48,403 nt of DNA from Candidatus Zixiibacteriota bacterium (GTDB lineage Bacteria; Zixibacteria; MSB-5A5; UBA10806; 4484-95). The stretch lies in the NCBI GenBank assembly GCA_021159005.1, contig JAGGSN010000057.1:1-48403 (forward strand). Reading direction: 5' to 3'. Under the pieces are notes generated by a model that did no database searches, was not told the origin of the DNA, and saw nothing but the letters and a program-made list of their open reading frames with translations. Of this stretch, positions 10,931 through 29,179 are shown in pieces. The position numbers and the translations under genes were made by a program. How positions within the stretch are numbered: the stretch's first letter is position 1; every line of letters starts with the position of its first letter.

Positions 10931-10962
10931 GCATGCATTAAGATGTTCGCCTGAGGCGGACA
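10931..10962. repeat. GTTCGCC/GGCGGAC dispersed palindrome copy
   Basis: The stretch AAGATGTTCGCCTGAGGCGGAC shares its core and flanks with the palindromes at 2863-2909, 38529-38570 and 40368-40417. Confidence 0.5.
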
Positions 10963-11000
10963 AAAAGCCGGACAGCAGTGGAATCTTTTGAAAAAATACC

Positions 11001-11030
11001 TTGACTCACAACTGATTGAGACTTTATAAT
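11001..11030 (+). promoter_or_regulatory. Sigma70-type promoter of the ABC/envelope supra-operon
   Basis: TTGACT (11001-11006), an 18-bp spacer and a perfect TATAAT (11025-11030) precede a leader of about 100 nt. The leader ends with an AGGGAG ribosome-binding site before the GTG at 11139. No other comparable promoter is seen before 29152, although the 175-bp gap at 16169-16343 could hold one. Confidence 0.65.
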
Positions 11031-11138
11031 CATCAAATTGGGAAAGAGTTACAATTGTCAAATAACTGGTTTTTAATTAGTACACGGTTATTAGGCTTCA
11101 ATCATTTAATAACTTAATCTTAGGGAGCGGACGAAAAA

Positions 11139-11810
11139 GTGAGAAAAGTATATATTATCCAAAATGTTTGCATTGTTGTTGCAATTTTAATGATTACAAG
11201 TTGTGGAGTTTTTATAAAGGGCAAAGACCCCGTCCTACAAATGAGTCCTTATGAGGATAATACCGCTTTTTACGGCAAAGTTGTTGATTTGTCGACTCAA
11301 GAGCCGCCTCGATATCCAATAAAAATCTCTTTGGAACCCGACGATCCCGGCAATCATTTAGTTGTTGACGGCCAATATTTTTATATTGAGGATAAAGGAC
11401 TCGAACCGGACTACGATTACACATTGAATATTAGAGCTCAGTATTATATTGAACATGAAATGCCTTTAAAATATGAATCCGGCAAGAGCCAGAATCTTGG
11501 CATAATACAGTTGAAATATATTGAGGCCTGGTTAAACGGTCCTTTTGAGCTGGGACCTTTTGAGGGATTCAATCCGGGTTCCGGAATAATTGAAAAGCAT
11601 GGCTGGAGCATATCCTCGTTTTTAAACCACTGGCGAACTAATTTCAGTGACCGTCCGTTTAAATTTGATGATGTTAAAAGCTATGTGCAAGAATCTCTTG
11701 GCGAAAATGCCTCGGATGTTAAAAAGGATGAAATAAAACAGGCGATAAAAAAATGGTTAGCTGAAAATCAAATAGAAAAATATGGCCGTCAATCATATAA
11801 ACTTAAATAA
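11139..11810 (+). CDS. Predicted lipoprotein with beta-sandwich domain
   Basis: This 223-residue protein has a short signal sequence ending in the lipobox ITSC (Cys22), so it should be lipid-anchored. Residues about 40-130 look like a carboxypeptidase-regulatory or transthyretin-like beta-sandwich (AFYGKVVDLST, then paired beta strands). Residues about 160-223 are helical and charged. I recognise no specific family. The GTG start at 11139 follows AGGGAG. It is the first gene of the long plus-strand block, 48 nt before the next gene. Confidence 0.7.
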   Translation: MRKVYIIQNVCIVVAILMITSCGVFIKGKDPVLQMSPYEDNTAFYGKVVDLSTQEPPRYPIKISLEPDDPGNHLVVDGQYFYIEDKGLEPDYDYTLNIRAQYYIEHEMPLKYESGKSQNLGIIQLKYIEAWLNGPFELGPFEGFNPGSGIIEKHGWSISSFLNHWRTNFSDRPFKFDDVKSYVQESLGENASDVKKDEIKQAIKKWLAENQIEKYGRQSYKLK

Positions 11811-11858
11811 CTTAGAGCCTGAGGGCGATAATAATGCATACTTTTTGGAGATGAATCT

Positions 11859-13103
11859 ATGTTTAATATGAAAAAGAAAAGAAAATTATCATTAAATAAC
11901 ACGCGCGGAGGCGTTTCGTTTACCGGAATCGTACTGGCTGTAATACTAATAGTTACGGTATTGGTGCTGTTTTTTCTTTTGAAAGAGGTTTTAAAAGAAG
12001 AAAAAGTTATCCTGACGATTCAAGCGCAGGATTCTGTCGGCGACCCGCTTGCGGGAGTTGAAATATTTATTGATGATATATTTGTTGCTTCCACAGATTC
12101 GCTTGGCGAATATCAATATATTTATTCTGCCAGCGATGAGGGCAAGACCATATCAATAAAAGCGACAATAGACGATTATCAGGAATTAGAAGTCAAACGT
12201 TTGCTGGGCATTAATCCGGTGATGGTTCCTCTCACGATGCTAAGACCCTTTGCCGATATAACATTCACTACAATTGACAGCATCTCCAACAAACCGGTTA
12301 AGGGGGTTGATATTTATGTGGCCGGCGAGAAAATCGGAACCACCGGTTCAGATGGCATCTTAGCTGTTCCATCCAATACGGTACGTCTGCATGATTTAGT
12401 TTATGTGCAATTGGAGGGAAAAAGATACAATCGAAAAACGGAAAGCGTTGATATAGCCAGTTTGGATTACAACAAAACCTTTGAAATAGTGAAAAAGAAG
12501 ACGAGAGCAAGGCGTCCCCGCCCTAAAAAGAAACAACCTTTGCCGCCTGTGATATCTGTTATTGAAACTCCCGAGATGGAATTTAAATCTGACGCGCCTG
12601 TTCCTATCAAAGCAGTCGAGGAAAATTCGGATGATACGACTCATCTGATTATAAACAGCGCTTTCAATTTATATAAGGATAAAAACTACCGTTCGGCTTT
12701 AGATGACTACAATAAATTAACTAGCATGAGACGGTGGTCTGCTCGGGCTGATTTCTGGCTGTACAGCGCCGATTGCGCGATTCACCTTTCGGGTGATAAA
12801 TATGGGCGATACAATCGGGCAATTCTTGACAGCGCGCTTACATTCTTAGAAAATGCCCAGCGTTACGAGGCTTATATCAAGGGTGATGTTTTCTCTGCCT
12901 TAGTAAAAATAAAAGTGGGAGAAACTTACGCTTATTTGTGCGAAACCCAGATAGGTGTAAATCATGAACGCGAGGCGGAATTCCGCAACAAGGCAGACCT
13001 TTATTTAAGCGAAGGGTTGACAATGCTTACAAACCAGAAACTCAACAATACGGATCTTTATAAATTTGCGCTTAGCTTGAGAGACGATGTTGGTCAATAT
13101 TAG
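11859..13103 (+). CDS. Membrane protein with two PEGA/CarboxypepD-like domains and a TPR-like C-terminus
   Basis: The 414-residue protein has a cytoplasmic basic N-terminus, one membrane helix (about 22-42) and two tandem beta-sandwich repeats. Each shows the pattern of regulatory-like or PEGA domains: first DPLAGVEIFIDDIFVASTDSLG, cut here to IFIDDIFVASTDSLG, then VKGVDIYVAGEKIGTTGSDG. A Lys/Pro-rich linker (KKKTRARRPRPKKK) leads to a helical, TPR-like region (about 260-414). It probably faces the periplasm. No exact family is recognised. It is part of the tight gene block and may scaffold the neighbouring transporter. Confidence 0.65.
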   Translation: MFNMKKKRKLSLNNTRGGVSFTGIVLAVILIVTVLVLFFLLKEVLKEEKVILTIQAQDSVGDPLAGVEIFIDDIFVASTDSLGEYQYIYSASDEGKTISIKATIDDYQELEVKRLLGINPVMVPLTMLRPFADITFTTIDSISNKPVKGVDIYVAGEKIGTTGSDGILAVPSNTVRLHDLVYVQLEGKRYNRKTESVDIASLDYNKTFEIVKKKTRARRPRPKKKQPLPPVISVIETPEMEFKSDAPVPIKAVEENSDDTTHLIINSAFNLYKDKNYRSALDDYNKLTSMRRWSARADFWLYSADCAIHLSGDKYGRYNRAILDSALTFLENAQRYEAYIKGDVFSALVKIKVGETYAYLCETQIGVNHEREAEFRNKADLYLSEGLTMLTNQKLNNTDLYKFALSLRDDVGQY

Positions 13104-13113
13104 GCTGTTTAAT

Positions 13114-14565
13114 ATGCTAATCAGAAGATTGTCCGCCGCTTTTATAATTTGCGTTATTTTAGCGTCATGCGGGGAAAGAAAAGATAAGTCATCCGCCAAA
13201 CAAGACCTGGCAAGTTTTGGCTCTTATTATGCCGGAAACATATCCCGCATACTCAATGCCGACAGCTTGACTGCTGTTGACAGCTTGAGGATTCTGGAAA
13301 ACGGTTATTATCAAGCCTCGTTTAATGCTCAGCTGTTTAAATTTCAAAAGGCGCTGGCAAAATCTTATTTCGCTGCCTGTCATGAAAAATGTGAAACCAA
13401 GAAATGCTCGCCGGGCAATATAATTAACGCCGCCATTGCTCACTACTTCGATGGCTGCAGCGATTCTGTATTGTTCCTGTGTGATTTAATAGATAAAACA
13501 AATAAGGATATTCCCCCTGAAGTTAATGAAATTAAAACAACGCTGTTAACTGTTATGTCGGTTGATTGGCAAGGTAAGCTGGATGATTTAATAAAAACGG
13601 GCGATATTAAGACTCCAACGGGAAAGAGTTTTCTATCGATTGTCTCGATGGATAGAGCATATGACCCGAATTACTGGATTGATAACATATCAAAAAAATC
13701 GAAAGGGTTAGAGCAATTGCCATTAAGGTATGCCTACTCTTATGCGCTGGCGCTTTCGGGCGAGGTTGTCAAAGCTTGGGAGACTATTCCTGATTATGCC
13801 CCTTTTGATACAGCTTATCCGCCCCCTTCTTTCACCGAGAATCTCGTTATAGGCGATTCCACTTTAGCGCAAAAATTGTATCTGCCAATAAACTTATATA
13901 TACGGAAACAAGTTGATGAAATGCTGCTAATCTATCTGCTTAATAGCGGCTATGCGGCAATAAATCCGCCAAGTGCCGTAGCTTTAAAGGCTTTATCGCA
14001 GATTAAAAAGCTAAGCGCGCCCGAAATCGATTCACCGTTTGAGGCATCTGAAACAGACAGTCTTCCCGGTTCTTTCGATAAAGAGCTGACATTCATTTTA
14101 TCGCATATTGAAGACAATCAAAACACTTCTGATATTTTTAAACAGCTTCATAACCCGATTTCGAGGGCGGCTTTCCTGAAACTTTTATCAGATAAGCCTG
14201 AGAATGATTATTCTCCCGAAATGACAAAATTGATAAACGGTGAAATCAATGATGTTAGAAAAAACATTAACGATTTGCCGGAGATAATATATTGGCAGAG
14301 CAGTATTTTCCTTTCTGGGGCGATATATAATGTTGCCGGTCCGGTAGAATCTTTCAGCCAATTAAATAATATTGGCCGCGTTGACTTATCGGTGAGGAAT
14401 AATTCTCCGGAATGGCTGGCGCTTTATGCCCGGGTGGGGCTGGAGGAAGGATCGCAGATTTCCATAGTTACCTTGGTATCGTTTAATATAACGCGTTATT
14501 ATCCCTATGCGATAGGGCTTTATGAGACAATGCAGAACTATAAACTTCTATGCAAATATTTTTGA
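13114..14565 (+). CDS. Predicted large lipoprotein, helical repeat type
   Basis: The protein begins with a clean lipoprotein signal (MLIRRLSAAFIICVILASC; lipobox LASC). About 460 mostly alpha-helical residues follow, with no motif I recognise; TPR-like solenoids are possible. A cysteine cluster CHEKCETKKCS lies near residue 95. The ATG at 13114 is preferred over the upstream in-frame ATG at 13087 because it gives a normal signal peptide and starts 10 nt after the previous stop. The 3' end lies 7 nt from the binding-protein gene, so it is probably an accessory of that transporter. Confidence 0.65.
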   Translation: MLIRRLSAAFIICVILASCGERKDKSSAKQDLASFGSYYAGNISRILNADSLTAVDSLRILENGYYQASFNAQLFKFQKALAKSYFAACHEKCETKKCSPGNIINAAIAHYFDGCSDSVLFLCDLIDKTNKDIPPEVNEIKTTLLTVMSVDWQGKLDDLIKTGDIKTPTGKSFLSIVSMDRAYDPNYWIDNISKKSKGLEQLPLRYAYSYALALSGEVVKAWETIPDYAPFDTAYPPPSFTENLVIGDSTLAQKLYLPINLYIRKQVDEMLLIYLLNSGYAAINPPSAVALKALSQIKKLSAPEIDSPFEASETDSLPGSFDKELTFILSHIEDNQNTSDIFKQLHNPISRAAFLKLLSDKPENDYSPEMTKLINGEINDVRKNINDLPEIIYWQSSIFLSGAIYNVAGPVESFSQLNNIGRVDLSVRNNSPEWLALYARVGLEEGSQISIVTLVSFNITRYYPYAIGLYETMQNYKLLCKYF

Positions 14566-14572
14566 GGAGCGT

Positions 14573-16168
14573 ATGAAATCAATGAAAGCAAACATCCAAA
14601 TTTTGGCGGCAGCATTAATACTTTGTTTGATAGCCGGTTCCGTTATGGCTCAATTTGGAACGGAGATGGTTTATTATGAATTGAACAAACCGCAGCGCAA
14701 TCTCAATCCGATTTCGGCTAACGACCTTCAAGTTTTCAGGATTGACGAATTAATCTTTGATGCTCTTTACAGCTGGGACCCTCAAGGCAATATCATTCCT
14801 CAAATGGCTCAAGGCTTGCCGAAAAGCATAGACGATGGCAAGGGGGCGCTGGTGATGTTGAAAAACAATCTGAAGTGGCCGGATTCCTCTGAGATAACCG
14901 TTGATGATGTAATATTAACATTCACCAAAAAATACACTGAAATAGACGACACTCGCCGGCGTCTTGAACTTATCAAGTCGGTAAATCCCGGTGAGGCTCC
15001 AAACAGCATTATCTTTAAATTTGAACGGAAAGTTGCGCATCCCGAGCGGCTATTAGCTAATATTTTTATTCTTCCCAGCAAAAAGCTGGATACATCTAAA
15101 AAATTCAGCTATTTTTGCGAACATCCAATGGGGGCAGGACCATATGGACTGGATAATATATCGATATCGCGTAATTCTTACTACTTCATTAAAAATCCAA
15201 ACTATAGCACTATTGCGGCTGGCCGTCCGTTGATAGACCGAGTAAAACTAATGTACTGGTGGAGCAAAGCGGCTTGGATTCCCAATATCTTAGACGGCGT
15301 GGTGGATATACTTCCGGGCATGGAATTTAATCCCGAGTTAAGCTCAAAACCCCGTATTATCAGCAAACCGGTTAACACCAACACAGTCGCTATGATTTTG
15401 ATTAATACAAATGATCCGGTGTTGAAAAATATCGACATAAGAAATGGGCTTCAGCACATTATTTCGAGAAATGATATCTATGATAAGAAATATTTCGGTG
15501 ATTCGACTCTCGTATTGACAGGACCGTATTCTCCCGCCAGTCATTTTTTCAATTATAAAGTTCCCTCATGGGTCTACAGCCCCGAAAAAGCGCATTCTCT
15601 TTTCAGGAAGTCCGGTTTGCTAACGGTGAATAACGGCAAGGTTATGAATAAAAAGGACAACAAGCAATGGAAGCTTTCGCTGAAAACATTCATAACCGCC
15701 GCCGGCGAACGTGAAAATCTCAGGGATGCCCTTGAGGCCGTTAATTCCTATTTATATAGCGGCGGCATCAATTCCAAAATCGAATACCTGCCTATGGAGG
15801 GCTACGTTCGAGCTTTGGAGAAAGGCGATTTTCAGTTGATTTATATGGAAATCACTTTTGACGATAATTTTGATATCGAGCCGTATTTCTCATCAAGTGC
15901 TATCCGTCGAAACGGCGGACGCAACTATGGCGGTTATTCCAATTCTAAAGTTGACAAAGCATTTGCGCAATTGAGTAAGTCATCGGTGCCCCAGGAACAG
16001 CAGAATATCGGCAAAGAGATTCACCAGCTTCTGCATGATGACCCGCCTGCCTTATTTCTCTGGAATCTGTTGAAGTGGAGTTATGTCAGGATGGAGCTTG
16101 AAGATGTCAATATTATGCCGTTTTACTTTTTCAGCACTATCGACCAGTGGAAGAAAAAAGCTGAATAG
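14573..16168 (+). CDS. Peptide-type ABC transporter substrate-binding protein (SBP_bac_5)
   Basis: The 531-residue secreted protein belongs to the DppA/OppA-type binding proteins. After the signal peptide (cleavage near VMAQ) it shows DGKGALVMLKNNLKWPDSSEITVDDV-type features, of which LKWPDSSEITVDDVI is the hallmark 'W-x-DG-P-TA-DDV' region. Later come HPMGAGPYGLDN and a C-terminal dimer of helices ending near the motif DDPPALFLWN. It has no lipobox. The start at 14573 follows GAGGAG; an upstream in-frame ATG at 14522 lies inside the previous gene and gives no proper signal peptide. The ligand is unknown. Confidence 0.88.
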   Translation: MKSMKANIQILAAALILCLIAGSVMAQFGTEMVYYELNKPQRNLNPISANDLQVFRIDELIFDALYSWDPQGNIIPQMAQGLPKSIDDGKGALVMLKNNLKWPDSSEITVDDVILTFTKKYTEIDDTRRRLELIKSVNPGEAPNSIIFKFERKVAHPERLLANIFILPSKKLDTSKKFSYFCEHPMGAGPYGLDNISISRNSYYFIKNPNYSTIAAGRPLIDRVKLMYWWSKAAWIPNILDGVVDILPGMEFNPELSSKPRIISKPVNTNTVAMILINTNDPVLKNIDIRNGLQHIISRNDIYDKKYFGDSTLVLTGPYSPASHFFNYKVPSWVYSPEKAHSLFRKSGLLTVNNGKVMNKKDNKQWKLSLKTFITAAGERENLRDALEAVNSYLYSGGINSKIEYLPMEGYVRALEKGDFQLIYMEITFDDNFDIEPYFSSSAIRRNGGRNYGGYSNSKVDKAFAQLSKSSVPQEQQNIGKEIHQLLHDDPPALFLWNLLKWSYVRMELEDVNIMPFYFFSTIDQWKKKAE

Positions 16169-16262
16169 TGTTTGGGATTGGCGTTAGAAAGTCTTTGCTG
16201 AACGCAGTTTGATAATCATTATTTATAGGAATTTCTTTTGTTAATGTCGAGCCATAAAAAAG

Positions 16263-16294
16263 CTCAGCGCATAGGGGCGTATTGCATACGCCCT
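16263..16294. repeat. CAGCGC-AGGGGCGT dispersed repeat with hairpin
   Basis: GGCGTAT-tgc-ATACGCC forms a perfect 7-bp hairpin in the only sizeable gap (175 bp) within the ABC gene block. The preceding CTCAGCGCATAGGGGCGTAT matches the repeat copies at 29157-29179 and 2846-2865. Confidence 0.55.
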
Positions 16295-16343
16295 CTGAAT
16301 TACCAGGCGCGTTTGATAACTATAGTGAAACTTGGAAACACAG

Positions 16344-17177
16344 ATGAATAATCTGCTTAAGAAATACTTTTTCATACTAATTAAAATTGCGGTTGTGCCG
16401 GCGGTTGTTACTATTGTTGTATGGCTGGCTTTCAAATTTGTTGGCGGCGAAATTATTGCTAATTACGAAGGGCCAGGGATACTCAGTTGGCTTAGCCGCT
16501 TGTATTTCAATTTTGATTTTGGCATTGCCGGCGGCTGGGCTTTAAGCAATCAGCCGGTGGCGCCATATCTCTGGGGAGCTATCGCCACTACCGGGACAAT
16601 AACATTTATTGCAATAGCGGTTGTCATTGTGATAAGTCTGTTTTGGTCATACATCTTTTGGAGGTATCCATTCAGCATTTGGTCTAAATCCGGCTCTATG
16701 GTCATTCGGTTTTTCTCAAGCTGGCCTATATTAATCGGGGCGATAATATTAGCGGTTGTGTCAAAAGGACAGGCATTTTCATCAATACTATTGCCGGCGT
16801 TGGCGCTGGCGTTTTTCGATAACAACCTGAACGATTTTAAGGACAACCTGAATGACGAGATAAAAAACGTCCTGAATTCTGATTATGCCGCCGCCGTAGT
16901 CGGGCAGGGTAGGAATTTTTTTAAAAACCTCAGCCCTGAGATATTATGGAAAATATTATCATTTATAAGTTCTCGATTGCCGGCATTGGTATCTGGGATA
17001 ATTATCCTTGAGCTGTATTTTAATATAAACGGTATTTATACATTCCTAAAGATGTTTTATGAGACTCGCGACTTGAACGCCATTTTGGGGATTACTTTTT
17101 TGGTATCATTTCTGCTGGCAATTTGGAGTTCGATTTTTACGGTTATTCATTCGCTAATCGATCCCAGGCAAAGGTAA
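16344..17177 (+). CDS. Divergent DppB/OppB-type ABC permease
   Basis: This polytopic inner-membrane protein (about 277 residues, roughly six hydrophobic segments) sits where the first permease of a dipeptide-type importer is expected, before a clear DppC-like permease. The EAA coupling loop is poorly conserved (NSDYAAAVVGQGRNFFK), while FNINGIYTF resembles the family's F-x-I-P-G element. It is short for DppB (usually about 330). The ATG at 16344 is chosen; an in-frame TTG at 16332 is possible. The assignment rests largely on context. Confidence 0.7.
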   Translation: MNNLLKKYFFILIKIAVVPAVVTIVVWLAFKFVGGEIIANYEGPGILSWLSRLYFNFDFGIAGGWALSNQPVAPYLWGAIATTGTITFIAIAVVIVISLFWSYIFWRYPFSIWSKSGSMVIRFFSSWPILIGAIILAVVSKGQAFSSILLPALALAFFDNNLNDFKDNLNDEIKNVLNSDYAAAVVGQGRNFFKNLSPEILWKILSFISSRLPALVSGIIILELYFNINGIYTFLKMFYETRDLNAILGITFLVSFLLAIWSSIFTVIHSLIDPRQR

Positions 17178-17183
17178 TAATAA

Positions 17184-18065
17184 ATGACGCGCTCTAATAC
17201 AGACAAAACCAAAATGAAAAAGTTTAGCCTGATGCTTTTTTATATTTATATTATTGTAGTGCTAACTGCCTTTATCTGGCCGTATTTTACAGAATCATCA
17301 TCTGCCGGCAGTTTTTCGCTGCCGTCGCCGGAGGAAAAAATACCCAGCTTGTCTCACCCTTTTGGATTGGATGATTTAGGTCATGATGTTCTAAGCGTTG
17401 TCCTTTCCGGTTTCAAAACAAGCTTTGTAAGCGGTTTATTAGCGACTGCTTTATTTCTCGTTGTTGGTCTTGTGATGGGCATTTTTATTGGCTTCGAGGA
17501 TAATCCTTTAGCCGGTTTTGCCGGCGGCATATCCAACAGCTTAAACTCGGTACCCAAGTTTTTCGCTTTGTTTATAGGCTTTATCATAATTGGTACCTAC
17601 AAGCCGTTCTTGTTGATGGCCATGCTTGGCATATTATGCGCGCCGCGTTTAGCAGAGATACTCAGGTTTAAAATTTCGCACTATCGGAAAGAGGATTTTT
17701 ACGATGCGGCAATCGCCTTAGGTCTTTCGCCATTCACTGTTATCTGGAAGCATATTATATGGTACAACACCAGAAAATCGATATTTTCCGAACTGGCTTA
17801 TATGTTTGGTTATGCCATATTAAGCGAAGCTACCTTATCTTTTATATTGCTTGGTTCCCCCGGACGGGGATGGCATAGCTGGGGCACTATAATTAATAAT
17901 GAACTATCAAGTTTTTCTGCATTCATTTACAACTTATTCAACCCCTCTGTGAGGGTCGATTTGATTACCGATAACCCGCTTAAATTTCTTATGCCATTTG
18001 CCGCCTTAGTCCTTACGGTTATGCTGTTTTCCGTTCTCTCCCGTAAATTCAGCGAGGAGGAGTAA
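17184..18065 (+). CDS. DppC/OppC-type ABC permease
   Basis: The 293-residue membrane protein has the OppC-type N-terminus: one helix, then HPFGLDDLGHDVLSVVLSGF. Five further helices and a canonical EAA loop, DFYDAAIALGLSPFTVIWKH (about 172-191), follow. The EAA loop contacts the ATPase. It should form the channel with the preceding permease. It lies 6 nt after that gene and 1 nt before the first ATPase gene. Confidence 0.88.
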   Translation: MTRSNTDKTKMKKFSLMLFYIYIIVVLTAFIWPYFTESSSAGSFSLPSPEEKIPSLSHPFGLDDLGHDVLSVVLSGFKTSFVSGLLATALFLVVGLVMGIFIGFEDNPLAGFAGGISNSLNSVPKFFALFIGFIIIGTYKPFLLMAMLGILCAPRLAEILRFKISHYRKEDFYDAAIALGLSPFTVIWKHIIWYNTRKSIFSELAYMFGYAILSEATLSFILLGSPGRGWHSWGTIINNELSSFSAFIYNLFNPSVRVDLITDNPLKFLMPFAALVLTVMLFSVLSRKFSEEE

Positions 18066-18066
18066 G

Positions 18067-19134
18067 ATGACGGAAGACTTCTTGATAAAGCTGACTAACC
18101 TGTCTGTCAGGCTGGCAGATTCAAACGCGCTGAAGTATTTAGTGAGGCATTCCGAACTGGAACTTCATAACGAGAAAGCAGTGGGCTTAGTGGGTGAATC
18201 AGGCAGCGGCAAGACGCTTACAGTAAGCTCAATTTTAGGGATAATTTCGTTTTTACCGGGCATCACCAGCGGCGAGCTGCAGCTGAATTATGACGGCAAT
18301 AAAGCGAATATATGGAATGACGCTCCTTGGAGAAATCATCCTGAGGCTAAGCTGGAGGGGTTATCGGATGCTGACTTTAACCGCAAAGAGTATTTTTTAT
18401 GGCAGAGGAAAATCGCCTCAAGGATGAAACGGTATAGAGGCAAAAAAATCAGCATTATTTTCCAGCGGGCTAAAACAAGTCTAAATCCGTTCTTAACAAT
18501 CAAAAACCAAATATATGAATCATTGACCATAGCGGGCGAGGCAAAAGATTATGACCGCATGCTTGAATGGCTTGCCAATTGCGGGTTTACTTTAAATGAG
18601 GCAAAACGGATTGCCGGGATGTATCCGCATCAGCTTTCTGGCGGCCAGGCTCAGAGGGCTATGATGGCGGTTACTTTAAGCAGTCAGGCGACCACTATTA
18701 TCGCCGATGAGCCAACCACCGGTTTGGATGCCAAACTTCAGGTAGAGACATTGGTATTTATAAAAAGGATGCTGGACCAGCATAAAAGGTCGGCGGTTAT
18801 TGTATCTCATAATCTTTATTCGGTGTCAAAATTTACTGATGTATGCTATGTCATGTATAGAGGCTTAACAGTAGAGAAGGGACCGACATCGAAAATCCTC
18901 AAACCGGCCGGGGATAACCATCCCTATACTCGGAAGCTGAGAGAGGGTGTTGAGAAAAACAGGCAGATTGGCCGAATTGTAACCGGTGAGATAACGGGCT
19001 GTCCCTTTTATCCCAACTGCGATTTGTATAAGAAAATGGCATCCTCCGAGCAAGCCAAGTGCAGAGAGGAATTGCCGCCGAAGATTAATATTGACAGCAA
19101 TCATTTTATAAGGTGCTGGGCGTTTGATGAGTAA
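18067..19134 (+). CDS. DppD/OppD-type ABC transporter ATP-binding protein
   Basis: This ATPase has Walker A GESGSGKT (43-50), signature LSGGQAQR (190-197) and Walker B IIADEP (211-216). A C-terminal oligopeptide-transporter tail has Cys pairs (CPFYPNC, then CRE and CWAF). Between Walker A and the Q-loop (Gln133) there is an insertion of roughly 30 residues relative to usual DppD proteins (about 79-128, with many W, R and K). The Q-loop reads FQRAKTSLNP where FQDPMTSLNP is usual. It powers peptide-type uptake with the next gene's product. Confidence 0.9.
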   Translation: MTEDFLIKLTNLSVRLADSNALKYLVRHSELELHNEKAVGLVGESGSGKTLTVSSILGIISFLPGITSGELQLNYDGNKANIWNDAPWRNHPEAKLEGLSDADFNRKEYFLWQRKIASRMKRYRGKKISIIFQRAKTSLNPFLTIKNQIYESLTIAGEAKDYDRMLEWLANCGFTLNEAKRIAGMYPHQLSGGQAQRAMMAVTLSSQATTIIADEPTTGLDAKLQVETLVFIKRMLDQHKRSAVIVSHNLYSVSKFTDVCYVMYRGLTVEKGPTSKILKPAGDNHPYTRKLREGVEKNRQIGRIVTGEITGCPFYPNCDLYKKMASSEQAKCREELPPKINIDSNHFIRCWAFDE

Positions 19135-21399: not shown

Positions 21400-21407
21400 A
21401 AGGTAAA

Positions 21408-22223
21408 ATGAAAAAATTTACAGCAATAACAGTATGCCTGTTTGTCATGTGGGGAGCATCAGCCCTGGCAGCATCAAAAGATGACAACCGAATGGAAACC
21501 GCCGAACAAGCATTTAAAGAGAAAAGCTATACTGATGCTAAAGCGATTTTCAACAGTTTAAAGGATAAGCCAAAGTTTCGTGCAAAATGCTATTTGTATC
21601 TGGCTATGACATATTATGAAACAGGTTTTATAGAAAACACTATCGACTGCTTGAATAAATTTAAAAGCTATGTTACAGACAAAACCGATCTCACTTTGCT
21701 GACTGCAGCGGATAACCTAACAAATGAGATTGAAAGTAATTTCAGCGCTCTTGATATTGTTATATTCAGCCAAGAGGAACAAAAGGGAGTTGATCCCGGC
21801 TACTATAATTTGCTTTTTCTATCAGAAGGCGGGTTAAACCCGGCGCAGGAGGCAAGACTAAGTGTTATCAATAAAGTGGTAACTCAATCGCAGGGCATCT
21901 TAAACTGGCAGAGCGACGGCACATTCTTAAAAGGGACTGTTAATTATTTCCCTGTTAAAATGTTCGAGACAACTCCTTTGATTGCGGAAGTCAACGGTAT
22001 TCCGGTTTATTTCAGGTACGATTTTCAGACATTACAGGGCTTATGGATTCCTTATGACATCCTCGAAACAAGCGAAGCGCCTGAACCATCGATAGCTTTT
22101 AGCGAAAGCTTCGACCGCGCTTATAGTCAGGATGATTCCTCGAAAAGCAATAAATCCAAATTTGTTGTTATTGGGACAGCTTTGGGGGCGGTTATCACCG
22201 CTATTGCTTTTGCGATATTTTAG
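21408..22223 (+). CDS. Secreted TPR-like protein with C-terminal hydrophobic tail, paralogue 1
   Basis: The protein (271 residues) has a signal peptide (cleavage near ALAA), a TPR-like N-terminal half (METAEQAFKEKSYTDAKAIF) and a C-terminal domain containing AQEARLSVINKVV and VNYFPV. It ends in the hydrophobic tail FVVIGTALGAVITAIAFAIF. The next gene has the same plan and matching motifs, so the two look like an old tandem duplication. The function is unknown. It is spaced 8 nt from its upstream neighbour. Confidence 0.65.
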   Translation: MKKFTAITVCLFVMWGASALAASKDDNRMETAEQAFKEKSYTDAKAIFNSLKDKPKFRAKCYLYLAMTYYETGFIENTIDCLNKFKSYVTDKTDLTLLTAADNLTNEIESNFSALDIVIFSQEEQKGVDPGYYNLLFLSEGGLNPAQEARLSVINKVVTQSQGILNWQSDGTFLKGTVNYFPVKMFETTPLIAEVNGIPVYFRYDFQTLQGLWIPYDILETSEAPEPSIAFSESFDRAYSQDDSSKSNKSKFVVIGTALGAVITAIAFAIF

Positions 22224-22234
22224 CGGGAAGGATT

Positions 22235-23116
22235 ATGTTTTTTAGAAGATTACAACTGCTGCTTTTATTGCTTGTTTTATGCCTGTGTATTGAAGCGGTG
22301 GGGCAGGGCAAAAAGTCTATCTGCGACGACCTGTTCCAGACAGGTCAACTGGAAACCGCCTTAGAATGTTATCAGGGAATTTACGAACTTAATTCTGATG
22401 ATCCCCTTGTTAATTTAAGGCTGTGCAAGATTATTGAAGCGATTGGCGATGTGGAAAATATCGGTCCGTATATTGGCAAAATCGACAGTTCATCAACGGA
22501 GGCGTTAAGTTTCCTTGAGTATCTTAATTCCAATTACCAGACTTTGAAGGTTGAACTTACCGGAGAGATAAAGTGTCCTCTTTATTTTGCGGGTAAAACT
22601 TTAGCCGAGTTTACACCGCCCTCCGATCTAAGCCAGGCGAAAGCCGCTCGTCTCGCGACGATAAACTCTGTTTATAATCCCGGAATACTGATGTTTCATA
22701 AAACAGACCCAACTACCGGCATCTCTGAGATACGTTATTTCCCTGTTGTTACCGATGTGCCCCTTCCATACAATGTTAAATTATCAGACAGTTCATATAA
22801 TTTGAATTTTAATTTCCTTAATAAGGAACCTTTACAAATAGACTGCAGCGATCTGGATTCAATGTATTGCCGGGTGCCGGAAAGTATCGCTGAGGTTCAG
22901 GTCGAGATTGATGATACCGATTTTGATGTATCGTTAAGGAAAGCTGTCTTAGCAGATTCGGCTGGTTTTAATTTTGTGAATACAAGATATTATATAAATC
23001 AGGGAGTGAAGCCCGTTTTACATTATCAGAAAAAAGGAATTCAACAAAAAGGCAAGAAGTATTTTGTAATGACATCTGCGATTTTAACTGTTGCGATGCT
23101 TCTTTTTCAAAGGTAA
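22235..23116 (+). CDS. Secreted protein with C-terminal hydrophobic tail, paralogue 2
   Basis: The 293-residue protein has a Leu-rich signal peptide (about 1-23) and a TPR-like segment (GQLETALECYQGIYELN). Its C-terminal domain carries AKAARLATINSVYNPGI and IRYFPV, matching AQEARLSVINKVV and VNYFPV in the preceding protein. It ends with the tail KKYFVMTSAILTVAMLLFQR. It probably acts with the two preceding tail-anchored-looking proteins. No named family is recognised. Confidence 0.65.
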   Translation: MFFRRLQLLLLLLVLCLCIEAVGQGKKSICDDLFQTGQLETALECYQGIYELNSDDPLVNLRLCKIIEAIGDVENIGPYIGKIDSSSTEALSFLEYLNSNYQTLKVELTGEIKCPLYFAGKTLAEFTPPSDLSQAKAARLATINSVYNPGILMFHKTDPTTGISEIRYFPVVTDVPLPYNVKLSDSSYNLNFNFLNKEPLQIDCSDLDSMYCRVPESIAEVQVEIDDTDFDVSLRKAVLADSAGFNFVNTRYYINQGVKPVLHYQKKGIQQKGKKYFVMTSAILTVAMLLFQR

Positions 23117-23122
23117 GGATAT

Positions 23123-24367
23123 ATGAAAATTCGTTTGTTAATAACATGGATGACAGTATTGTTGATTGCCGGTACGGCATTATCAGATGAGCTTATAGAT
23201 TTTGTAGATAAGCCGCGCTTATTAAACACCGGCGAGGCGGGACAAGGAGAAAATCATTTCCGTCCCCGATGGAGCGGCGACGGCAGCTGGCTGTCTTTTG
23301 AGTTAATTGACGACAACTCCTTGCGAGTGTTTACAACGGTACCAGGTTCTGATTTCATATATGAATGCCGCAGCAAGCAGAAAGACAGCTATTCCGGCGC
23401 TTTAGATTTATTCGGCGGCGGCAACAGCGGCAAGCTTGCTATTACACGTTTATCGTGGGCTAAACAGCCATTTAATAATACGGCTATGTTTTGTTTTGTC
23501 GATAACGGCGTATTATATAAATCATTCGCTTTTATTTCGGGTGATAAACCGTCAGTAGCGCCTATCGGACAATTTATTTCAAGCGCAAAAATGACGGGAG
23601 TTGGCAAAAAGAACGGTTTGTTTATCCCCGAACTCGGCTATACTCCACTTAAGGGGCAGCCGCCGGTAGTTTTTACCGACAACGACACAGGCAAGCTTTT
23701 TGCAATAACCGAGATGCAGAATTTAGTGCAGATGACTTTTAGTAAACCGGATGAAGCGTTTTCTGATTACTGCGCCAAATTCAAACCGGTTGACAACGCC
23801 GCCATTGTTTTTATGCGGGCTTATGAGGGCAACTCGGAGCTTTACTTGATTGAGGATATTACTCATCCCGAAGAAAGTTTAAAATTACTTTTAAGCTGGA
23901 AAAAATCGGATGAAGTAGCGCCCAACTGGTCGCCGGATGGTAAAAAGATAGCTTTCTATTCTAATCGCCATAAAAATGGCAGCAGTAAAAAACAGTGGGA
24001 CCTTTATTATATGGACCTGTCGGCCGGCGGTGAACCAACGCTGTTAGCATCGAATATCCGGCCTGATAATATAGACGAGAAAATTGCGCCCCCCTATATC
24101 GGGCCGCAATGGATGGGCGATGATGTGATAATATTTATCAGCGATGACAAACCCAACAAGGACCCTATGATGTATGTTCAATTGTCCACCGGCAGTATTG
24201 AGATTTTACCGGTGGGAACGATTCTTAATGATTGTCCTAATGTATATGATGCCGGCGATGGCACCTATCTTCTGGCATATACGACTTTTGGAAAGAAAAC
24301 TACAGACCTGACGCAGCCGGATATAACAAATAAAATATACTATGCAAAAATGATATTCAGCGAGTGA
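23123..24367 (+). CDS. Secreted TolB-like PD40 beta-propeller protein
   Basis: The 414-residue protein has a signal peptide (cleavage near LSDE) and PD40/WD40-like repeats such as RPRWSGDGSWLSFE and APNWSPDGKKIAFYSNR. These form a periplasmic beta-propeller like that of TolB. It is not a full TolB: the N-terminal TolB domain is missing, and it lies far from the tolQR genes. It is spaced 6 nt from the preceding gene. A protein-binding role is likely. Confidence 0.75.
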   Translation: MKIRLLITWMTVLLIAGTALSDELIDFVDKPRLLNTGEAGQGENHFRPRWSGDGSWLSFELIDDNSLRVFTTVPGSDFIYECRSKQKDSYSGALDLFGGGNSGKLAITRLSWAKQPFNNTAMFCFVDNGVLYKSFAFISGDKPSVAPIGQFISSAKMTGVGKKNGLFIPELGYTPLKGQPPVVFTDNDTGKLFAITEMQNLVQMTFSKPDEAFSDYCAKFKPVDNAAIVFMRAYEGNSELYLIEDITHPEESLKLLLSWKKSDEVAPNWSPDGKKIAFYSNRHKNGSSKKQWDLYYMDLSAGGEPTLLASNIRPDNIDEKIAPPYIGPQWMGDDVIIFISDDKPNKDPMMYVQLSTGSIEILPVGTILNDCPNVYDAGDGTYLLAYTTFGKKTTDLTQPDITNKIYYAKMIFSE

Positions 24368-24380
24368 GCTTGGAGGATAT

Positions 24381-27300
24381 ATGGTATTGATGAGAAAAAT
24401 AATTTTTCTGATAATAATAATCTTTATGCTTGGCGCTTCGAAAGCTAACGCGGTCAATCTCAATATTACTTTTGAACCGGATGACACTCTTGAAATAGCC
24501 GAGGGAACTCTGGATTCTGTAACCGTAAGGTTTGTAGAACATACAGGAGGTCCCAGTGATCCGCATCCGCCTGTTTCGATTGTAGATCCGCCAAGTTTCA
24601 TATCAACCTCTATAACATGGGATTTTGATGCTGGTGATCCGAGAACTAATGTAATCATTAGAGCAAATCCGGGTTATTCAGACGCAGGCAGTTGCAGCAT
24701 AGACATAACAGCCAGCGACCTTAACGCAGATGATACAACAGTAACTCTTACGGTTATAATTAATAATAGCAACAGGGCGCCCGTTATAGAAAATCTGCCG
24801 ACTACAATAGATATCAATGAGGGCGACAATACGGTTTTCGCGGTAGCCGCCACTGATCTTGATGGCGATATTGACAATTATTCTATGACTCCGAGCATTG
24901 ATTGGGTAAGCATAAATACCTCTACCGGCGCTATTACTGTGAGCGCTGTGCCCGATTCTGTTGCCGATTGGAATAATGACACCGTTTTGAGAGTATTCAA
25001 CGTTACTGTTGAAGACCTCGCTAATGATACGGATACTGAAAATTTCACGGTAAGGGTTCAGAATGTTAACCGGCCGCCGGTATTCCAGAAACCATCACAG
25101 GATACTGTAGTTGCAACATATCAGGCTGACACCAGTTCTATTATATTTTACGCGACTGATGAAGACACCCAGTACGAAAGCGATGATGTCAGTTATTCAA
25201 ATTTGGATGATATAGTAACCGAGTTGGGCAATGCCGGCTGGTATGTTTCGATTGATGACTTAAATGATTCACTAAAATTGACAGTAAGTCCCCCGCACGA
25301 TTTTGAGGGATTGTATGGCGCATCGTTCAGATTTGCGGCTTATGACTTGGCGTTTGATACTACTCTTGTTAGAATCAGTTTCATAGTAGTTGATAATATC
25401 CCGCCGGATACTATCACATCACTAAGCGGAAGCGTTTCGGGTATGGCATTCGGCAAGGTTGAGCTTGAATGGGATGCGCCGCATGAGGATATGAATATAA
25501 GCTCAAGCGGGGCAGTTAACGCTTATTATATAAAATATGCGACATCCGCGCCCGCCAATTCGAACGACTGGAATTGGTGGAACAGCACAGCGGAATATAT
25601 TACCCAGAATCCCCCTTATCCGCCGGCGACACCTGGTAATACTGACAACGTTATAATTGATGGCTTAACAGAATATCAGAATTACTGGTTTGGCATCATG
25701 GCAAGGGATGCCGCTAATGAAACATCAATAGTATATATAAATACCGATTCTATCAAGGCCAAATCACAGGCTCCCGAAATAGCTATCGCCGAACTTGATT
25801 CGGTTTTGCCCGAAACGGAATTTACTATCAAGTGCGCTGTCTCTGATTCCGGCGGAACAATTGACAGCATATCCTTTTCGTTCGACAGCCTGACCTGGGC
25901 GGATATCGCCGCTGTCGATTCGGTATCCGATTCATCAGCCTCATTTATAAGAAAACATTTCCATATTGACACAACTATAAGCTCAAATTCAACTCTCTAT
26001 GTTAAAGCTTATGATTCTCAAGTTTGGGGGTACGCCAGCAGACTTATATATATAGACAACACACCTCCCGCTGTGCCTATCGTAACTGATAGTACTGATG
26101 GTACATTAGTCAATGATCCCCTTTTCTATTTTGCCGGAACGAAAGAAACTGGCGCAACCGTATGGGCATTTGTGAAATTTGGCGGAAATCCCGGCAGCAG
26201 TATCCGGCTAACTGAAGAAGGCGACAACAGCACAACTTGGCAGGATACAATATCCGCCTACTATCAGGGACAGATTAGCTTCAGGTTTTATGCAACCGAT
26301 GAGGCGGGCAATCCCAGCGACAGCACATCGGAGCATATTTATACATTAGATACGGAAGCGCCTTATATAGTCGGGTCGCCTATTGTAACGCAATATACCA
26401 ACGAACAGCAAACTTCCTCAGCAGTGATGAATATTTTATTCAATGAAGCGTTAGATTCAAATACGGTTGGGCGGGATGATTTCACTATTGTCAATCAAGA
26501 TACAGTTCTTACAATTGATTCTTTAACCGAGCTTGTCTTTCTGCAGTATTCGGTAAGAATTGATTTTTCGGATTCATTAACAACTGCATTATTAGAACTT
26601 ATTTCTCAATCAACCGGAAATTATCCGGTATTATCAATAGATTCTGCTTCATTTACAGATATGGCCGGTAATTATAACAATGATATTTCAATAACTTTCC
26701 AATCAAATCTGAATGTTATTGACGATACAACGATTGTCTTTACAAATTCGACAAACATAAATCCCGACTCGGCTTCATTTACTATCGAGTTTACAACGAG
26801 CCAGATATCATATTTCACATTTTCCATATTAAATGAGCAGGGTAATATCGTTTACAGCATAATTGAAAATCCGCTCAGCGCCGGCGATCATTCATATACA
26901 TGGGTGGATACAATAGACGGCAGTCCGGCTCCCGATGGCTGGTATAAAGCTCGTTTTTCCGCTCGTCCTTATCCGGTAAGTCCCTACGATTTGCCTATTG
27001 AGGTTGTGCTGATTCTGGATTCATATGCGCCCTACGAGGCGAGCTTCTTTCCCAATTCAGGTTCCGACAGCAATTCTGCCAGAGTGATAAACAGTCTGCC
27101 GCGATTTGAGCTTGTGGTGGGCGATACGGGAGCGGTAAGCGCCAATGCCCGGGCTGAAATAGTCAATCCATTCTTAGTCTATGGCGACTCTGATGCCGAC
27201 ACTTTATTCTTCTCGGAAAATGATTCAATACCCAACCTGTGGCTTACCGATTCGTTAGCGGCTCCGCTGACAGTGGGATTATATGAGATGACTTTGGTGA

Positions 27301-27659
27301 TTGCCGATTCGGCAGGCAACTTAAGCAGCTATGCTAAATATTACGAGGTAACAGATGACAGCGGAGTTGCCGGTTTTTTGAATTATCCCAATCCATTCGC
27401 TCCATCCATAGAGCAAACAGCCATTGTATATAATCTCGGCGGTGATATTACCGAGCTGAAGCTTGAAATATATGATACCAGCGGCGATTTAGTATATCTT
27501 ACGGATTTAACCGGCGATTACCTGACCGAAGGGTCGCATGAAATTCCCTGGAATGGGAAATCATCATGGGGGAAAACGCTTAATAATGGCGTTTATTTCG
27601 CCAGATTAACCGGCAGCATCAATTCGGAATTCTTAAAGATTGCAATCGCTGATAGATAA
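24381..27659 (+). CDS. Giant secreted Ig/cadherin/FnIII-domain protein with FlgD-like C-terminus
   Basis: The protein has 1092 residues. After a signal peptide (about 1-24) come many beta-sandwich domains. Cadherin-like repeats occur at about 130-330 (NRAPVIENLPTTIDINEGDN, then NRPPVFQKPS). A fibronectin-III-like domain lies at about 335-460 (PPDTITSLSGSVSGMAFGKV). Bacterial Ig-like domains follow to about 780, with FlgD-like segments after that. The last 80 residues begin FLNYPNPFAPS and end GVYFARLTG, the FlgD/type A sorting-like C-terminal domain common in FCB surface proteins. It is probably displayed at the cell surface. The start at 24381 follows GGAGG. Confidence 0.8.
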   Translation: MVLMRKIIFLIIIIFMLGASKANAVNLNITFEPDDTLEIAEGTLDSVTVRFVEHTGGPSDPHPPVSIVDPPSFISTSITWDFDAGDPRTNVIIRANPGYSDAGSCSIDITASDLNADDTTVTLTVIINNSNRAPVIENLPTTIDINEGDNTVFAVAATDLDGDIDNYSMTPSIDWVSINTSTGAITVSAVPDSVADWNNDTVLRVFNVTVEDLANDTDTENFTVRVQNVNRPPVFQKPSQDTVVATYQADTSSIIFYATDEDTQYESDDVSYSNLDDIVTELGNAGWYVSIDDLNDSLKLTVSPPHDFEGLYGASFRFAAYDLAFDTTLVRISFIVVDNIPPDTITSLSGSVSGMAFGKVELEWDAPHEDMNISSSGAVNAYYIKYATSAPANSNDWNWWNSTAEYITQNPPYPPATPGNTDNVIIDGLTEYQNYWFGIMARDAANETSIVYINTDSIKAKSQAPEIAIAELDSVLPETEFTIKCAVSDSGGTIDSISFSFDSLTWADIAAVDSVSDSSASFIRKHFHIDTTISSNSTLYVKAYDSQVWGYASRLIYIDNTPPAVPIVTDSTDGTLVNDPLFYFAGTKETGATVWAFVKFGGNPGSSIRLTEEGDNSTTWQDTISAYYQGQISFRFYATDEAGNPSDSTSEHIYTLDTEAPYIVGSPIVTQYTNEQQTSSAVMNILFNEALDSNTVGRDDFTIVNQDTVLTIDSLTELVFLQYSVRIDFSDSLTTALLELISQSTGNYPVLSIDSASFTDMAGNYNNDISITFQSNLNVIDDTTIVFTNSTNINPDSASFTIEFTTSQISYFTFSILNEQGNIVYSIIENPLSAGDHSYTWVDTIDGSPAPDGWYKARFSARPYPVSPYDLPIEVVLILDSYAPYEASFFPNSGSDSNSARVINSLPRFELVVGDTGAVSANARAEIVNPFLVYGDSDADTLFFSENDSIPNLWLTDSLAAPLTVGLYEMTLVIADSAGNLSSYAKYYEVTDDSGVAGFLNYPNPFAPSIEQTAIVYNLGGDITELKLEIYDTSGDLVYLTDLTGDYLTEGSHEIPWNGKSSWGKTLNNGVYFARLTGSINSEFLKIAIADR

Positions 27660-27672
27660 CAAAGGAGATTCG

Positions 27673-28638
27673 ATGATAAAACGGTTTTTAATTATAATAT
27701 GCCTGGCGGTTCTGTCAATCCAGACAGTGCATGGCGGGGAAAGCGAATTTCCATTGTTCAAAGTTGGAGCCGGCGGCAGAGCGGCGGCAATGGGCGGCGC
27801 CTATACCGGTGTTGCCAATGATGCCAGCGCCGTATTCTGGAATCCTGCCGGGTTAGCTCAGATAGATAAAACGATATCGCTAATGTTTACCAACCGCATG
27901 CATTTTCAAAGCATGAAGCTATTGGAATTCTTCGGCACATACTCTGATATAAAGTTTGGAACTTTCGGCATCGGGATTTTATCAAACCAGGTTGATGACA
28001 TTAACGCTTATGATTCCCAGATGAATTTTTTGGGGACTTTTGGTTCATACGAACGGATGTTTATAATTAGTTACGCTTATAATTTGACGCCTGTATATAT
28101 TGGTTTCAGTTTAGCCAGCGTGCAGGAAGGGATGGATCCCTATCAAGGCGATTTAAGCGGTAATGGTATTTCTATAAATGTCGGCTTGATGACCAGAATT
28201 TCTAATAATTTCAAAATTGGTTCAACAATAAGGCCTGGTTTTTCAGTTAAATACGATGACAACAAGGACAACATTCCCGGTCAGACCAGTCTGGGAGCAG
28301 AATTCACTATGGGAATGGAGCTTGTTTCTCCTGATGATTCCCTGCGTCTTGTGGTCGATTTAAACCAGTCTAATCGCCTGCCTCTAAAAACCAATTTCGG
28401 AATCGAATTGGGTTTCATGAATGCTATTTATATAAGGGGCGGCATAAATTCTTTGATGATTGAAAGCAGAACCGATGACCTCGAACTATCGGATTATATG
28501 TCTGCTAATATGAAATACTGTTTTGGCGCCGGTTTGAGATTTTCAGTTTTGGATGGCAGTATTTTTCATCTCGATTTCGGATTGACCTCTGCCAACATGG
28601 GGAGTTCAACCGCTATCACGCTTAGCTGGATAAAATAA
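27673..28638 (+). CDS. PorV/UPF0164-like outer-membrane beta-barrel protein
   Basis: This 321-residue protein starts with a signal peptide. The typical PorV/UPF0164 N-terminus follows: FPLFKVGAGGRAAAMGGAYT, then VANDASAVFWNPAGLAQ. The remainder is alternating beta strands ending in an aromatic-poor strand (AITLSWIK). PorV proteins are FadL-like barrels that, in type IX secretion, receive secreted proteins at the outer membrane. Here it follows directly after a protein with a sorting-type C-terminus. The start at 27673 has an AAAGGAG site; an upstream in-frame start inside the previous gene is unlikely. Confidence 0.8.
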   Translation: MIKRFLIIICLAVLSIQTVHGGESEFPLFKVGAGGRAAAMGGAYTGVANDASAVFWNPAGLAQIDKTISLMFTNRMHFQSMKLLEFFGTYSDIKFGTFGIGILSNQVDDINAYDSQMNFLGTFGSYERMFIISYAYNLTPVYIGFSLASVQEGMDPYQGDLSGNGISINVGLMTRISNNFKIGSTIRPGFSVKYDDNKDNIPGQTSLGAEFTMGMELVSPDDSLRLVVDLNQSNRLPLKTNFGIELGFMNAIYIRGGINSLMIESRTDDLELSDYMSANMKYCFGAGLRFSVLDGSIFHLDFGLTSANMGSSTAITLSWIK

Positions 28639-28642
28639 GATA

Positions 28643-29152
28643 ATGCGATATTCTGTTAGAGTAATAGCATATATTTTAGCGGTAATAGTATTATTCAATA
28701 CAGCGGCTTATTGCGATAAGATTAATGTAAGCGCCGGTCGCGAGATAAAAATTAAGTACAAATCAAAATTATCGACCGAGCTTGAGCAATCTAAAAAGCT
28801 CAGTGATATATTAGAAATTTCTCAAAATGTCGCTATTGGCGGTATCGATGTTTTCAAAGCTGGCGGTACGGTTTACGGCGAGATTATCAAATTTAAAAAA
28901 CCCGGCCGATTGGGAAAACCTGCCGTTATTAAAGTAAGAATAGATTCGGTTCAGGCTATTGGCGGTAAAAACATTAGAGTAAAACCTGTATCTTTATCCG
29001 CTAAAGGAAAAAGCAAGAAATTGAAAGCATGCCTGCTTCTGCCGCTTCTTGGCTATGGCTATTTTTTTGTTAGAGGCGGCCATGCGTTGCTTGGCAGTGA
29101 TGAGATAGAATTAACGGTAAAGACAGCGCGGTTCGCGGAAATTGCATTCTAA
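28643..29152 (+). CDS. Small secreted protein of unknown function
   Basis: The 169-residue protein has a signal peptide (about 1-24), a beta-rich core with GGTVYGEIIKFKKPGRLGKP and IKVRIDSVQAIGGKNIRVKP, and a hydrophobic LLLPLLGYGYFFVRGG segment near 130. The core resembles small envelope domains seen in FCB bacteria, in which basic strands alternate with 'DG..V' turns, but I cannot name the family. It is the last gene of the plus-strand block, 4 nt after the barrel gene. Confidence 0.6.
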   Translation: MRYSVRVIAYILAVIVLFNTAAYCDKINVSAGREIKIKYKSKLSTELEQSKKLSDILEISQNVAIGGIDVFKAGGTVYGEIIKFKKPGRLGKPAVIKVRIDSVQAIGGKNIRVKPVSLSAKGKSKKLKACLLLPLLGYGYFFVRGGHALLGSDEIELTVKTARFAEIAF

Positions 29153-29156
29153 TTAT

Positions 29157-29179
29157 ACATCAGCGCGCAGGGGCGTATG
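29157..29179. repeat. CAGCGC-AGGGGCGT dispersed repeat copy
   Basis: ACATCAGCGCGCAGGGGCGT is nearly identical to the sequences at 2846-2865 and 16263-16281, but here it lacks the second hairpin arm. It lies between two convergent operons. Confidence 0.5.

What the first reader, a model, noticed from the sequence alone, without database searches (positions are those of the whole stretch)
11139..29152. An 18-kb envelope supra-operon built around a divergent dipeptide-type ABC importer
Fifteen consecutive plus-strand genes, mostly separated by 1-14 nt or overlapping, follow one good promoter. They encode two lipoproteins, a PEGA/TPR-like membrane protein, a complete five-gene ABC importer, three secreted proteins with C-terminal hydrophobic tails, a PD40 propeller, a giant Ig-domain protein, a PorV-like barrel and a small secreted protein. 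Dpp/Opp operons normally hold only the importer. Packing it with so many envelope and surface proteins suggests a machine that couples ATP hydrolysis to work at the cell surface, or a surface-capture and uptake system. I know of no named system with this gene set.
Basis: partly seen in the sequence, partly recalled or inferred. Interest (0 to 1): 0.75.

Follow-up and report, generated by a model that had tools for sequence, protein, structure and literature searches.

The report
Envelope operon linked to injection machine
A 15-gene block in an uncultured Zixiibacteriota bacterium, which looks like a peptide importer bundled with many surface proteins, is a conserved unit, and its last gene and its neighbours in relatives tie it to an unusual type VI (contractile) injection system that lacks the standard membrane anchor.

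Summary
The 15-gene plus-strand block is real. It is one conserved unit: genes 1-12 keep their order in three genera of two families of Candidatus Zixiibacteriota (genes 13-15 also, where contigs reach), and every part searched across 132 phylum genomes occurs only in those three. The importer is an intact SBP5/Dpp-type ABC system. In one relative the block runs straight into a type VI secretion system (T6SS) cluster; in another it starts beside PAAR and OmpA-like genes. Gene 15 is a fixed T6SS-cluster gene phylum-wide, about 10 kb from tssC in 28 genomes. The window's genome carries the same T6SS on another contig. This T6SS type (65 genomes) has no IcmF/TssM; a DO-GTPase and a TssL-like protein follow tssK. 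Most likely the block is an accessory envelope module of that T6SS. What the importer does for it (uptake of prey or wall peptides, or a firing signal) is inference; no expression data or usable structure was obtained.

The parts
11139..11810 (+). Gene 1: lipoprotein, 223 aa, no known domain
   Evidence: lipobox ITSC; orthologues only in G002 and G008, 44-48% identical
11859..13103 (+). Gene 2: N-terminal TM anchor, weak Ig/carboxypeptidase-regulatory-like domains, C-terminal part described as TPR-like
   Evidence: no PEGA hit; orthologues in G002 and G008
13087..14565 (+). Gene 3: lipoprotein, 492 aa, no known domain
   Evidence: lipobox LASC; orthologues in G002 and G008 and a solo paralogue in G002
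14573..16168 (+). Gene 4: periplasmic solute-binding protein, family 5 (start moved from 14522)
   Evidence: SBP_bac_5 116 bits; nearest solved relative AppA oligopeptide-binding protein; SD at 14573
16273..16293 (.). Palindromic repeat in the gap before gene 5, repeated on the T6SS contig
16332..17177 (+). Gene 5: DppB/OppB-type permease, divergent (start probably 16344)
   Evidence: BPD_transp_1 29.5 bits; OppB in PDB 1.2e-5; only 3 of 132 phylum genomes
17184..18065 (+). Gene 6: DppC/OppC-type permease
   Evidence: BPD_transp_1 38 bits; Opp4C best NCBIfam
18067..19134 (+). Gene 7: DppD-type ATPase
   Evidence: ABC_tran 70 bits; GESGSGKT, LSGGQAQR, C-terminal Cys pair
19124..20128 (+). Gene 8: DppF-type ATPase (start probably 19127)
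   Evidence: ABC_tran 104 bits; GRSGSGKS, LSGGECRR, ADEPVTALD
20128..21399 (+). Gene 9: secreted TPR-like protein with hydrophobic C-terminus
   Evidence: weak TPR; only in 3 genomes
21408..22223 (+). Gene 10: secreted protein with C-terminal TM, paralogue of gene 11
   Evidence: hhalign probability 96.8 with gene 11
22235..23116 (+). Gene 11: secreted protein with hydrophobic C-terminus, paralogue of gene 10
23123..24367 (+). Gene 12: secreted PD40/TolB-like propeller
   Evidence: PD40 46.8 bits; orthologues 52-56% identical
24381..27659 (+). Gene 13: 1092-aa surface protein with Ig-like repeats and T9SS type A sorting domain
   Evidence: FlgD_ig; TIGR04183 27.2 bits against cut-off 23
27673..28638 (+). 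Gene 14: PorV/PorQ-family outer-membrane barrel (start moved from 27640)
   Evidence: NF033709 96.2 bits against cut-off 90; SD
28643..29152 (+). Gene 15: small secreted protein that is a regular gene of Zixiibacteriota T6SS clusters
   Evidence: profile hits in 60 of 132 genomes, 54 with this TssC; about 10 kb from tssC in 28

Best explanation
The block is an accessory cell-envelope module of a non-canonical T6SS of Zixiibacteriota. Shown: genes 1-12 are one conserved unit found only in genomes with this T6SS subtype; gene 15, the last gene, is itself a regular gene of these T6SS clusters; the block abuts T6SS genes in two relatives. Inferred: the T6SS is anchored by a TssL-like protein and a DO-GTPase (in the place of TssM), with gene 15 in the periplasm. 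The lipoproteins (1, 3), periplasmic proteins (2, 9-11), propeller (12), T9SS-exported Ig protein (13) and PorV-like barrel (14) add an outer-membrane and surface part. The Dpp-type importer takes up peptides there, either as food (released from prey or from the cell wall) or as a signal that licenses assembly, much as the ABC-like TagQRST complex does in Pseudomonas.
For: Strict co-conservation and order of genes 1-12 in three genera. G002: genes 8-15 on one contig run directly into a T6SS cluster. G008: PAAR and OmpA-like genes diverge from gene 1. Gene 15 sits 9.95-10.9 kb from tssC in 28 genomes and co-occurs with this TssC (54 of 60, Fisher 6e-19, not corrected for kinship). The window's genome has the same T6SS on contig C118 and a PAAR/OmpA locus on C105. 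In G000 genes 1-14 stay coupled to gene 15 although the T6SS core is on another contig. IcmF never occurs together with this TssC. Importer motifs are intact.
Against: G005 and G007, complete genomes, have this T6SS and gene 15 but not genes 1-12, so genes 1-14 are not needed for the T6SS as such. The co-occurrence of genes 1-14 with the T6SS inside the order is weak by itself (3 of 5 with against 0 of 4 without, P = 0.12). In the window's genome the block is not next to the T6SS core. No expression or interaction data, and no homology of genes 1-14 to any T6SS protein.
Confidence: 0.6

Rival explanations
1. A stand-alone peptide capture and import system (surface Ig protein, barrel, lipoproteins and Dpp-type importer) that lies beside the T6SS locus by descent and merely shares a transcript with gene 15.
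For: The importer is complete and ordinary in its motifs and the best conserved part of the block (59-70% identity against 36-56% for most others). G005 and G007 keep the T6SS without it. In the window's genome it is away from the T6SS core.
Against: It abuts T6SS genes at its 3' end in G002 and at its 5' end in G008, and ends in a T6SS gene in both genomes where the end can be read. It is absent from the T6SS-free members of the order.
Confidence: 0.27
2. A T6SS-activating sensor that works like TagQRST: the importer-like ABC complex and lipoproteins sense envelope damage or a peptide and trigger T6SS assembly, with import secondary or lost.
For: Two lipoproteins, periplasmic proteins and an ABC complex near a T6SS, as in TagQRST (PMC10482370).
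Against: The ABC type differs (SBP5 importer with two BPD_transp_1 permeases). No PpkA-type kinase was seen beside the T6SS of G000 or G002.
Confidence: 0.1
3. Chance packing of unrelated envelope genes, with no shared function.
For: Most single domains are common in the FCB group (own knowledge).
Against: Same order in three genera at 36-70% protein identity and in no other of 132 phylum genomes.
Confidence: 0.03

Closest known systems
Dpp/Opp/Nik-type ABC importer (solute-binding protein family 5)
   Same: All five subunits with intact ATPase motifs; best solved relatives of gene 4 are AppA and NikA-like proteins
   Different: Scores far below every named NCBIfam equivalog; embedded in a conserved operon with ten envelope proteins
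T6SS of Pseudomonadota (T6SS-i, TssJLM membrane complex)
   Same: The linked clusters have TssB, C, D, E, G, H, K, VgrG and a TssF assigned by position
   Different: No IcmF/TssM in any genome with this TssC; a DO-GTPase and a TssL-like protein follow tssK instead
T6SS of Bacteroidota (T6SS-iii, TssNQOPR membrane complex; PMC10781749)
   Same: Hcp of the Bacteroidetes TssD family (PF17642); no TssJLM; multi-part envelope gene set
   Different: No TssN hit in 132 genomes, though that search had no positive control; the paper reports T6SS-iii only in Bacteroidota
TagQRST (Pseudomonas aeruginosa H1-T6SS activation; PMC10482370)
   Same: ABC-transporter-like complex with an OM lipoprotein and a periplasmic protein, linked to a T6SS
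   Different: Importer of the SBP5 type with BPD_transp_1 permeases, many more envelope proteins, no kinase seen nearby
DO-GTPase/GAP1 conflict systems (PMC7159879)
   Same: DO-GTPase2 and, weakly, GAP1-N2 Pfam matches in the linked T6SS cluster of G002
   Different: Here placed after tssK inside a T6SS cluster; the passages read in that paper describe other contexts
T9SS cargo with PorV/PorQ-family barrel
   Same: Genes 13 and 14 pass the curated cut-offs
   Different: Embedded in a T6SS-linked operon; the rest of a T9SS was not searched

Membership tests
Dpp/Opp-type ABC importer (genes 4-8) | Family 5 solute-binding protein, two BPD_transp_1 permeases, two ABC ATPases over curated cut-offs | tested here: met
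   116, 29.5, 38, 70 and 104 bits, all over cut-off
Dpp/Opp-type ABC importer (genes 4-8) | Intact Walker A and signature motifs in both ATPases | tested here: met
Dpp/Opp-type ABC importer (genes 4-8) | Peptide, nickel or other substrate | not testable with these tools
   Needs binding or uptake assays
T6SS-associated module | T6SS core genes in the same genome | tested here: met
   G000 contig C118
T6SS-associated module | Physical linkage to T6SS genes | tested here: met
   G002 3' side and G008 5' side; not adjacent in the window itself
T6SS-associated module | Co-occurrence with the T6SS beyond kinship | tested here: inconclusive
   Strong for gene 15; for genes 1-14 only three genomes, P = 0.12 within the order
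T6SS-associated module | Required for, or acting with, the T6SS | not testable with these tools
   Needs genetics
Canonical TssJLM membrane complex (the linked T6SS) | IcmF/TssM present | tested here: not met
   PF06761 in 11 of 132 genomes, none among the 65 with this TssC; control positive
TssNQOPR membrane complex (the linked T6SS) | TssN present | tested here: inconclusive
   No hit, but no control genome gave a hit either
TagQRST | ABC transporter of the TagTS kind | tested here: not met
   The ABC proteins are a family 5 importer with BPD_transp_1 permeases
T9SS cargo and PorV/PorQ family (genes 13, 14) | C-terminal sorting domain and PorV-family barrel above curated cut-offs | tested here: met
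   TIGR04183 27.2 against 23; NF033709 96.2 against 90

The most novel reading that the evidence does not exclude
Zixiibacteriota carry a T6SS lineage whose membrane anchor is neither TssJLM nor TssNQOPR but a DO-GTPase, a TssL-like protein and gene 15. In one order it is extended by a 14-gene outer-membrane and surface module whose peptide importer couples peptide uptake or sensing to firing.
Probability: 0.33. Interest if true: 0.85.

Novelty: new variant of a known kind. Interest (0 to 1): 0.66.

Why it matters
How T6SSs outside Pseudomonadota and Bacteroidota are anchored in the envelope is open. The Bacteroidota anchor was described in 2024 and reported absent from other phyla (PMC10781749). 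Here 65 of 132 Zixiibacteriota genomes share a T6SS in which no TssM is found, with a GTPase where TssM would be expected and a conserved small secreted protein (gene 15). The operon is, in the papers I could search, an undescribed case of a full Dpp-type importer tied to a T6SS, which makes a link between attack, sensing and feeding testable.

Tried and rejected
Genome-contig scan with the permease alignment gave only the two relatives already known, but named the phylum. Single-sequence AlphaFold models of genes 15 and 1 had mean pLDDT 34.5 and 43.4 and are unusable, so no fold search was run; proteins from genome-search loci were not handed to the structure tool because its stated rule does not list them. 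Profile searches of the TssL-like protein, the DO-GTPase and gene 15 against PDB, and of the TssL-like protein and gene 15 against Pfam, gave no TssJ, TssL or TssM match. Profile comparison of operon proteins with the envelope genes beside other Zixiibacteriota T6SSs showed no homology; only genes 10 and 11 are related, to each other. Promoter and terminator scans were not above chance. Literature searches found no description of a Zixiibacteriota T6SS or of a Dpp importer in a T6SS locus in the held library. A chance packing of genes was considered and rejected on the conserved order.
Full report
WHAT IS THERE. The fifteen plus-strand ORFs from 11139 to 29152 are real and tightly packed. Start sites with good ribosome-binding sequences move gene 4 to 14573 and gene 14 to 27673. 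The only large gap, before gene 5, contains a palindromic repeat. The flanks are ordinary: yceD, plsX and fatty-acid genes on the left and an NrfD/Fe-S/class III cytochrome cluster on the right, both on the minus strand. The GC of the block (0.417) matches its surroundings.

THE PROTEINS. Genes 4-8 are a complete importer of the SBP5 (Dpp/Opp/Nik) type, over the Pfam cut-offs and with intact ATPase motifs, but far from every named NCBIfam equivalog. Gene 5 is the weakest match to its family, yet it is 61-63% identical between the three genomes. Genes 1 and 3 are lipoproteins; gene 2 has one N-terminal membrane helix; genes 9-11 are secreted with hydrophobic C-termini; genes 10 and 11 are paralogues. 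Gene 12 is a PD40 propeller. Gene 13 ends in a T9SS-type sorting domain and gene 14 is a PorV/PorQ-family barrel, both above curated cut-offs; that they act as cargo and partner is inference. The 'PEGA' label for gene 2 is not supported.

ONE CONSERVED UNIT. The two relatives that carry the operon are named Candidatus Zixiibacteriota, and the window's genome is placed in the same family as one of them. Orthologues of genes 1-12 occur in the same order in G002 (same family, another genus) and G008 (another family). In G002 they lie on three contigs whose ends overlap by 503 and 323 bp at 97-98% identity; in G008 the contigs do not overlap, so order across the breaks is inferred. Genes 13-15 follow in G002; the G008 contig ends inside gene 13. 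Across 132 phylum genomes, gene 1, the permease and genes 9-11 are found only in these three, apart from one marginal hit at 7.7e-4. Identities of 36-70% argue against a very recent transfer of a chance block.

THE T6SS LINK. In G002 the block ends at 8461 of L036 and a convergent cluster begins at 8458: a GAP1-like protein, a DO-GTPase, a TM protein, TssK, TssG, TssF (assigned by position and length; no Pfam hit), TssE, VgrG, TssD, TssC, TssB and a ClpV-type ATPase (TssC, TssB and ClpV were named from sequence and position, not from a family search). In G008, PAAR (with a weak SpaA-like match) and OmpA-like genes sit divergently upstream of gene 1. The same T6SS core is on contig C118 of the window's own genome. 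A profile of gene 15 finds homologues in 60 of 132 genomes, 54 of them among the 65 with this TssC. In the 28 genomes where both lie within 20 kb on one contig they are 9.95-10.9 kb apart, in 26 of them on the same strand. Reading such loci gives the order tssH-B-C-D-vgrG-E-F-G-K, TssL-like protein, DO-GTPase, gene 15; G027 shows the convergent arrangement of G002 without the operon. In the single-contig genomes G005 and G007, which have the T6SS but not genes 1-12, gene 15 lies between PAAR and the DO-GTPase. PAAR/OmpA-type genes occur in exactly the five T6SS-positive members of the order.

THE ANCHOR. IcmF (TssM) is found in 11 phylum genomes, none of them among the 65 with this TssC, and the positive control worked (chance of no overlap 3.7e-4, not corrected for kinship). 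The DO-GTPase has an N-terminal GTPase half, one membrane helix and a C-terminal half of about 330 residues; the protein before it has a soluble N-terminal part and a C-terminal helix. These layouts recall TssM and TssL (own knowledge), but no homology was found by profile search. A search for TssN, the core of the Bacteroidota anchor, was empty but had no positive control. That the GTPase, the TssL-like protein and gene 15 form the anchor is inference.

MECHANISM. Most likely the block adds an outer-membrane, periplasmic and surface part to this T6SS, with a peptide importer acting at the same site. Shown: conservation, linkage, gene 15 membership in T6SS clusters, intact importer motifs. Inferred: co-transcription, physical contact with the T6SS, and the purpose of the importer. 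Two purposes fit: recovery of peptides released by prey lysis or wall remodelling, or use of a peptide as a signal for assembly. The closest functional precedent is TagQRST, where an OM protein, a periplasmic protein and ABC-like proteins activate the Pseudomonas H1-T6SS (PMC10482370); it is a different ABC type, so this is a likeness and not membership.

LIMITS. G005 and G007 show that genes 1-14 are dispensable for having the T6SS. The phyletic support for genes 1-14 rests on three genomes, one of them 69% complete, and is weak by itself (P = 0.12). Phylum tallies use one genome per species and are not corrected for kinship. Structure prediction failed for lack of alignment depth. No collection outside this phylum could be searched deeply, so a wider distribution is not excluded.

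Noticed in passing
G000:C118 (L072, L073) and 64 other phylum genomes: A T6SS type without IcmF/TssM, with a DO-GTPase and a TssL-like protein after tssK; 11 other phylum genomes have IcmF instead, with no overlap.
   Followed up: partly
L107-L112, L117-L118 (G015, G127, G110, G104): Next to gene 15 in other Zixiibacteriota T6SSs lies a convergent set: Ser/Thr kinase, two TPR-type proteins, a barrel-like protein and lipoproteins, without detectable homology to the window operon.
   Followed up: partly
window 16273-16293 and 29161-29178; L072 547 and 11046; L073 6857: A palindromic repeat GGGGCGTATTGCATACGCCC in the gene 4/5 gap, a partial copy just after gene 15, and three copies at borders around the T6SS cluster on C118.
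   Followed up: partly
L113/L114 (G073): In G073 the T6SS cluster lies about 5 kb from yceD-plsX-fab, the same genes that flank the 5' side of the window operon, with atp genes between. It may be an old shared locus or chance.
   Followed up: no
L009 7150-8547 (G002:C336): A solo paralogue of gene 3 without any ABC gene nearby.
   Followed up: no
L119 (G000:C105): PAAR and OmpA-type genes followed by further genes and a 2460-aa ORF, a possible T6SS spike and cargo locus of the window's genome.
   Followed up: no
window 29393-35232, minus strand: NrfD, Fe-S protein, class III multihaem cytochrome, CCG Fe-S protein and nitrate-reductase-gamma-like genes, a membrane redox complex of the kind seen in sulfate reducers.
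   Followed up: no
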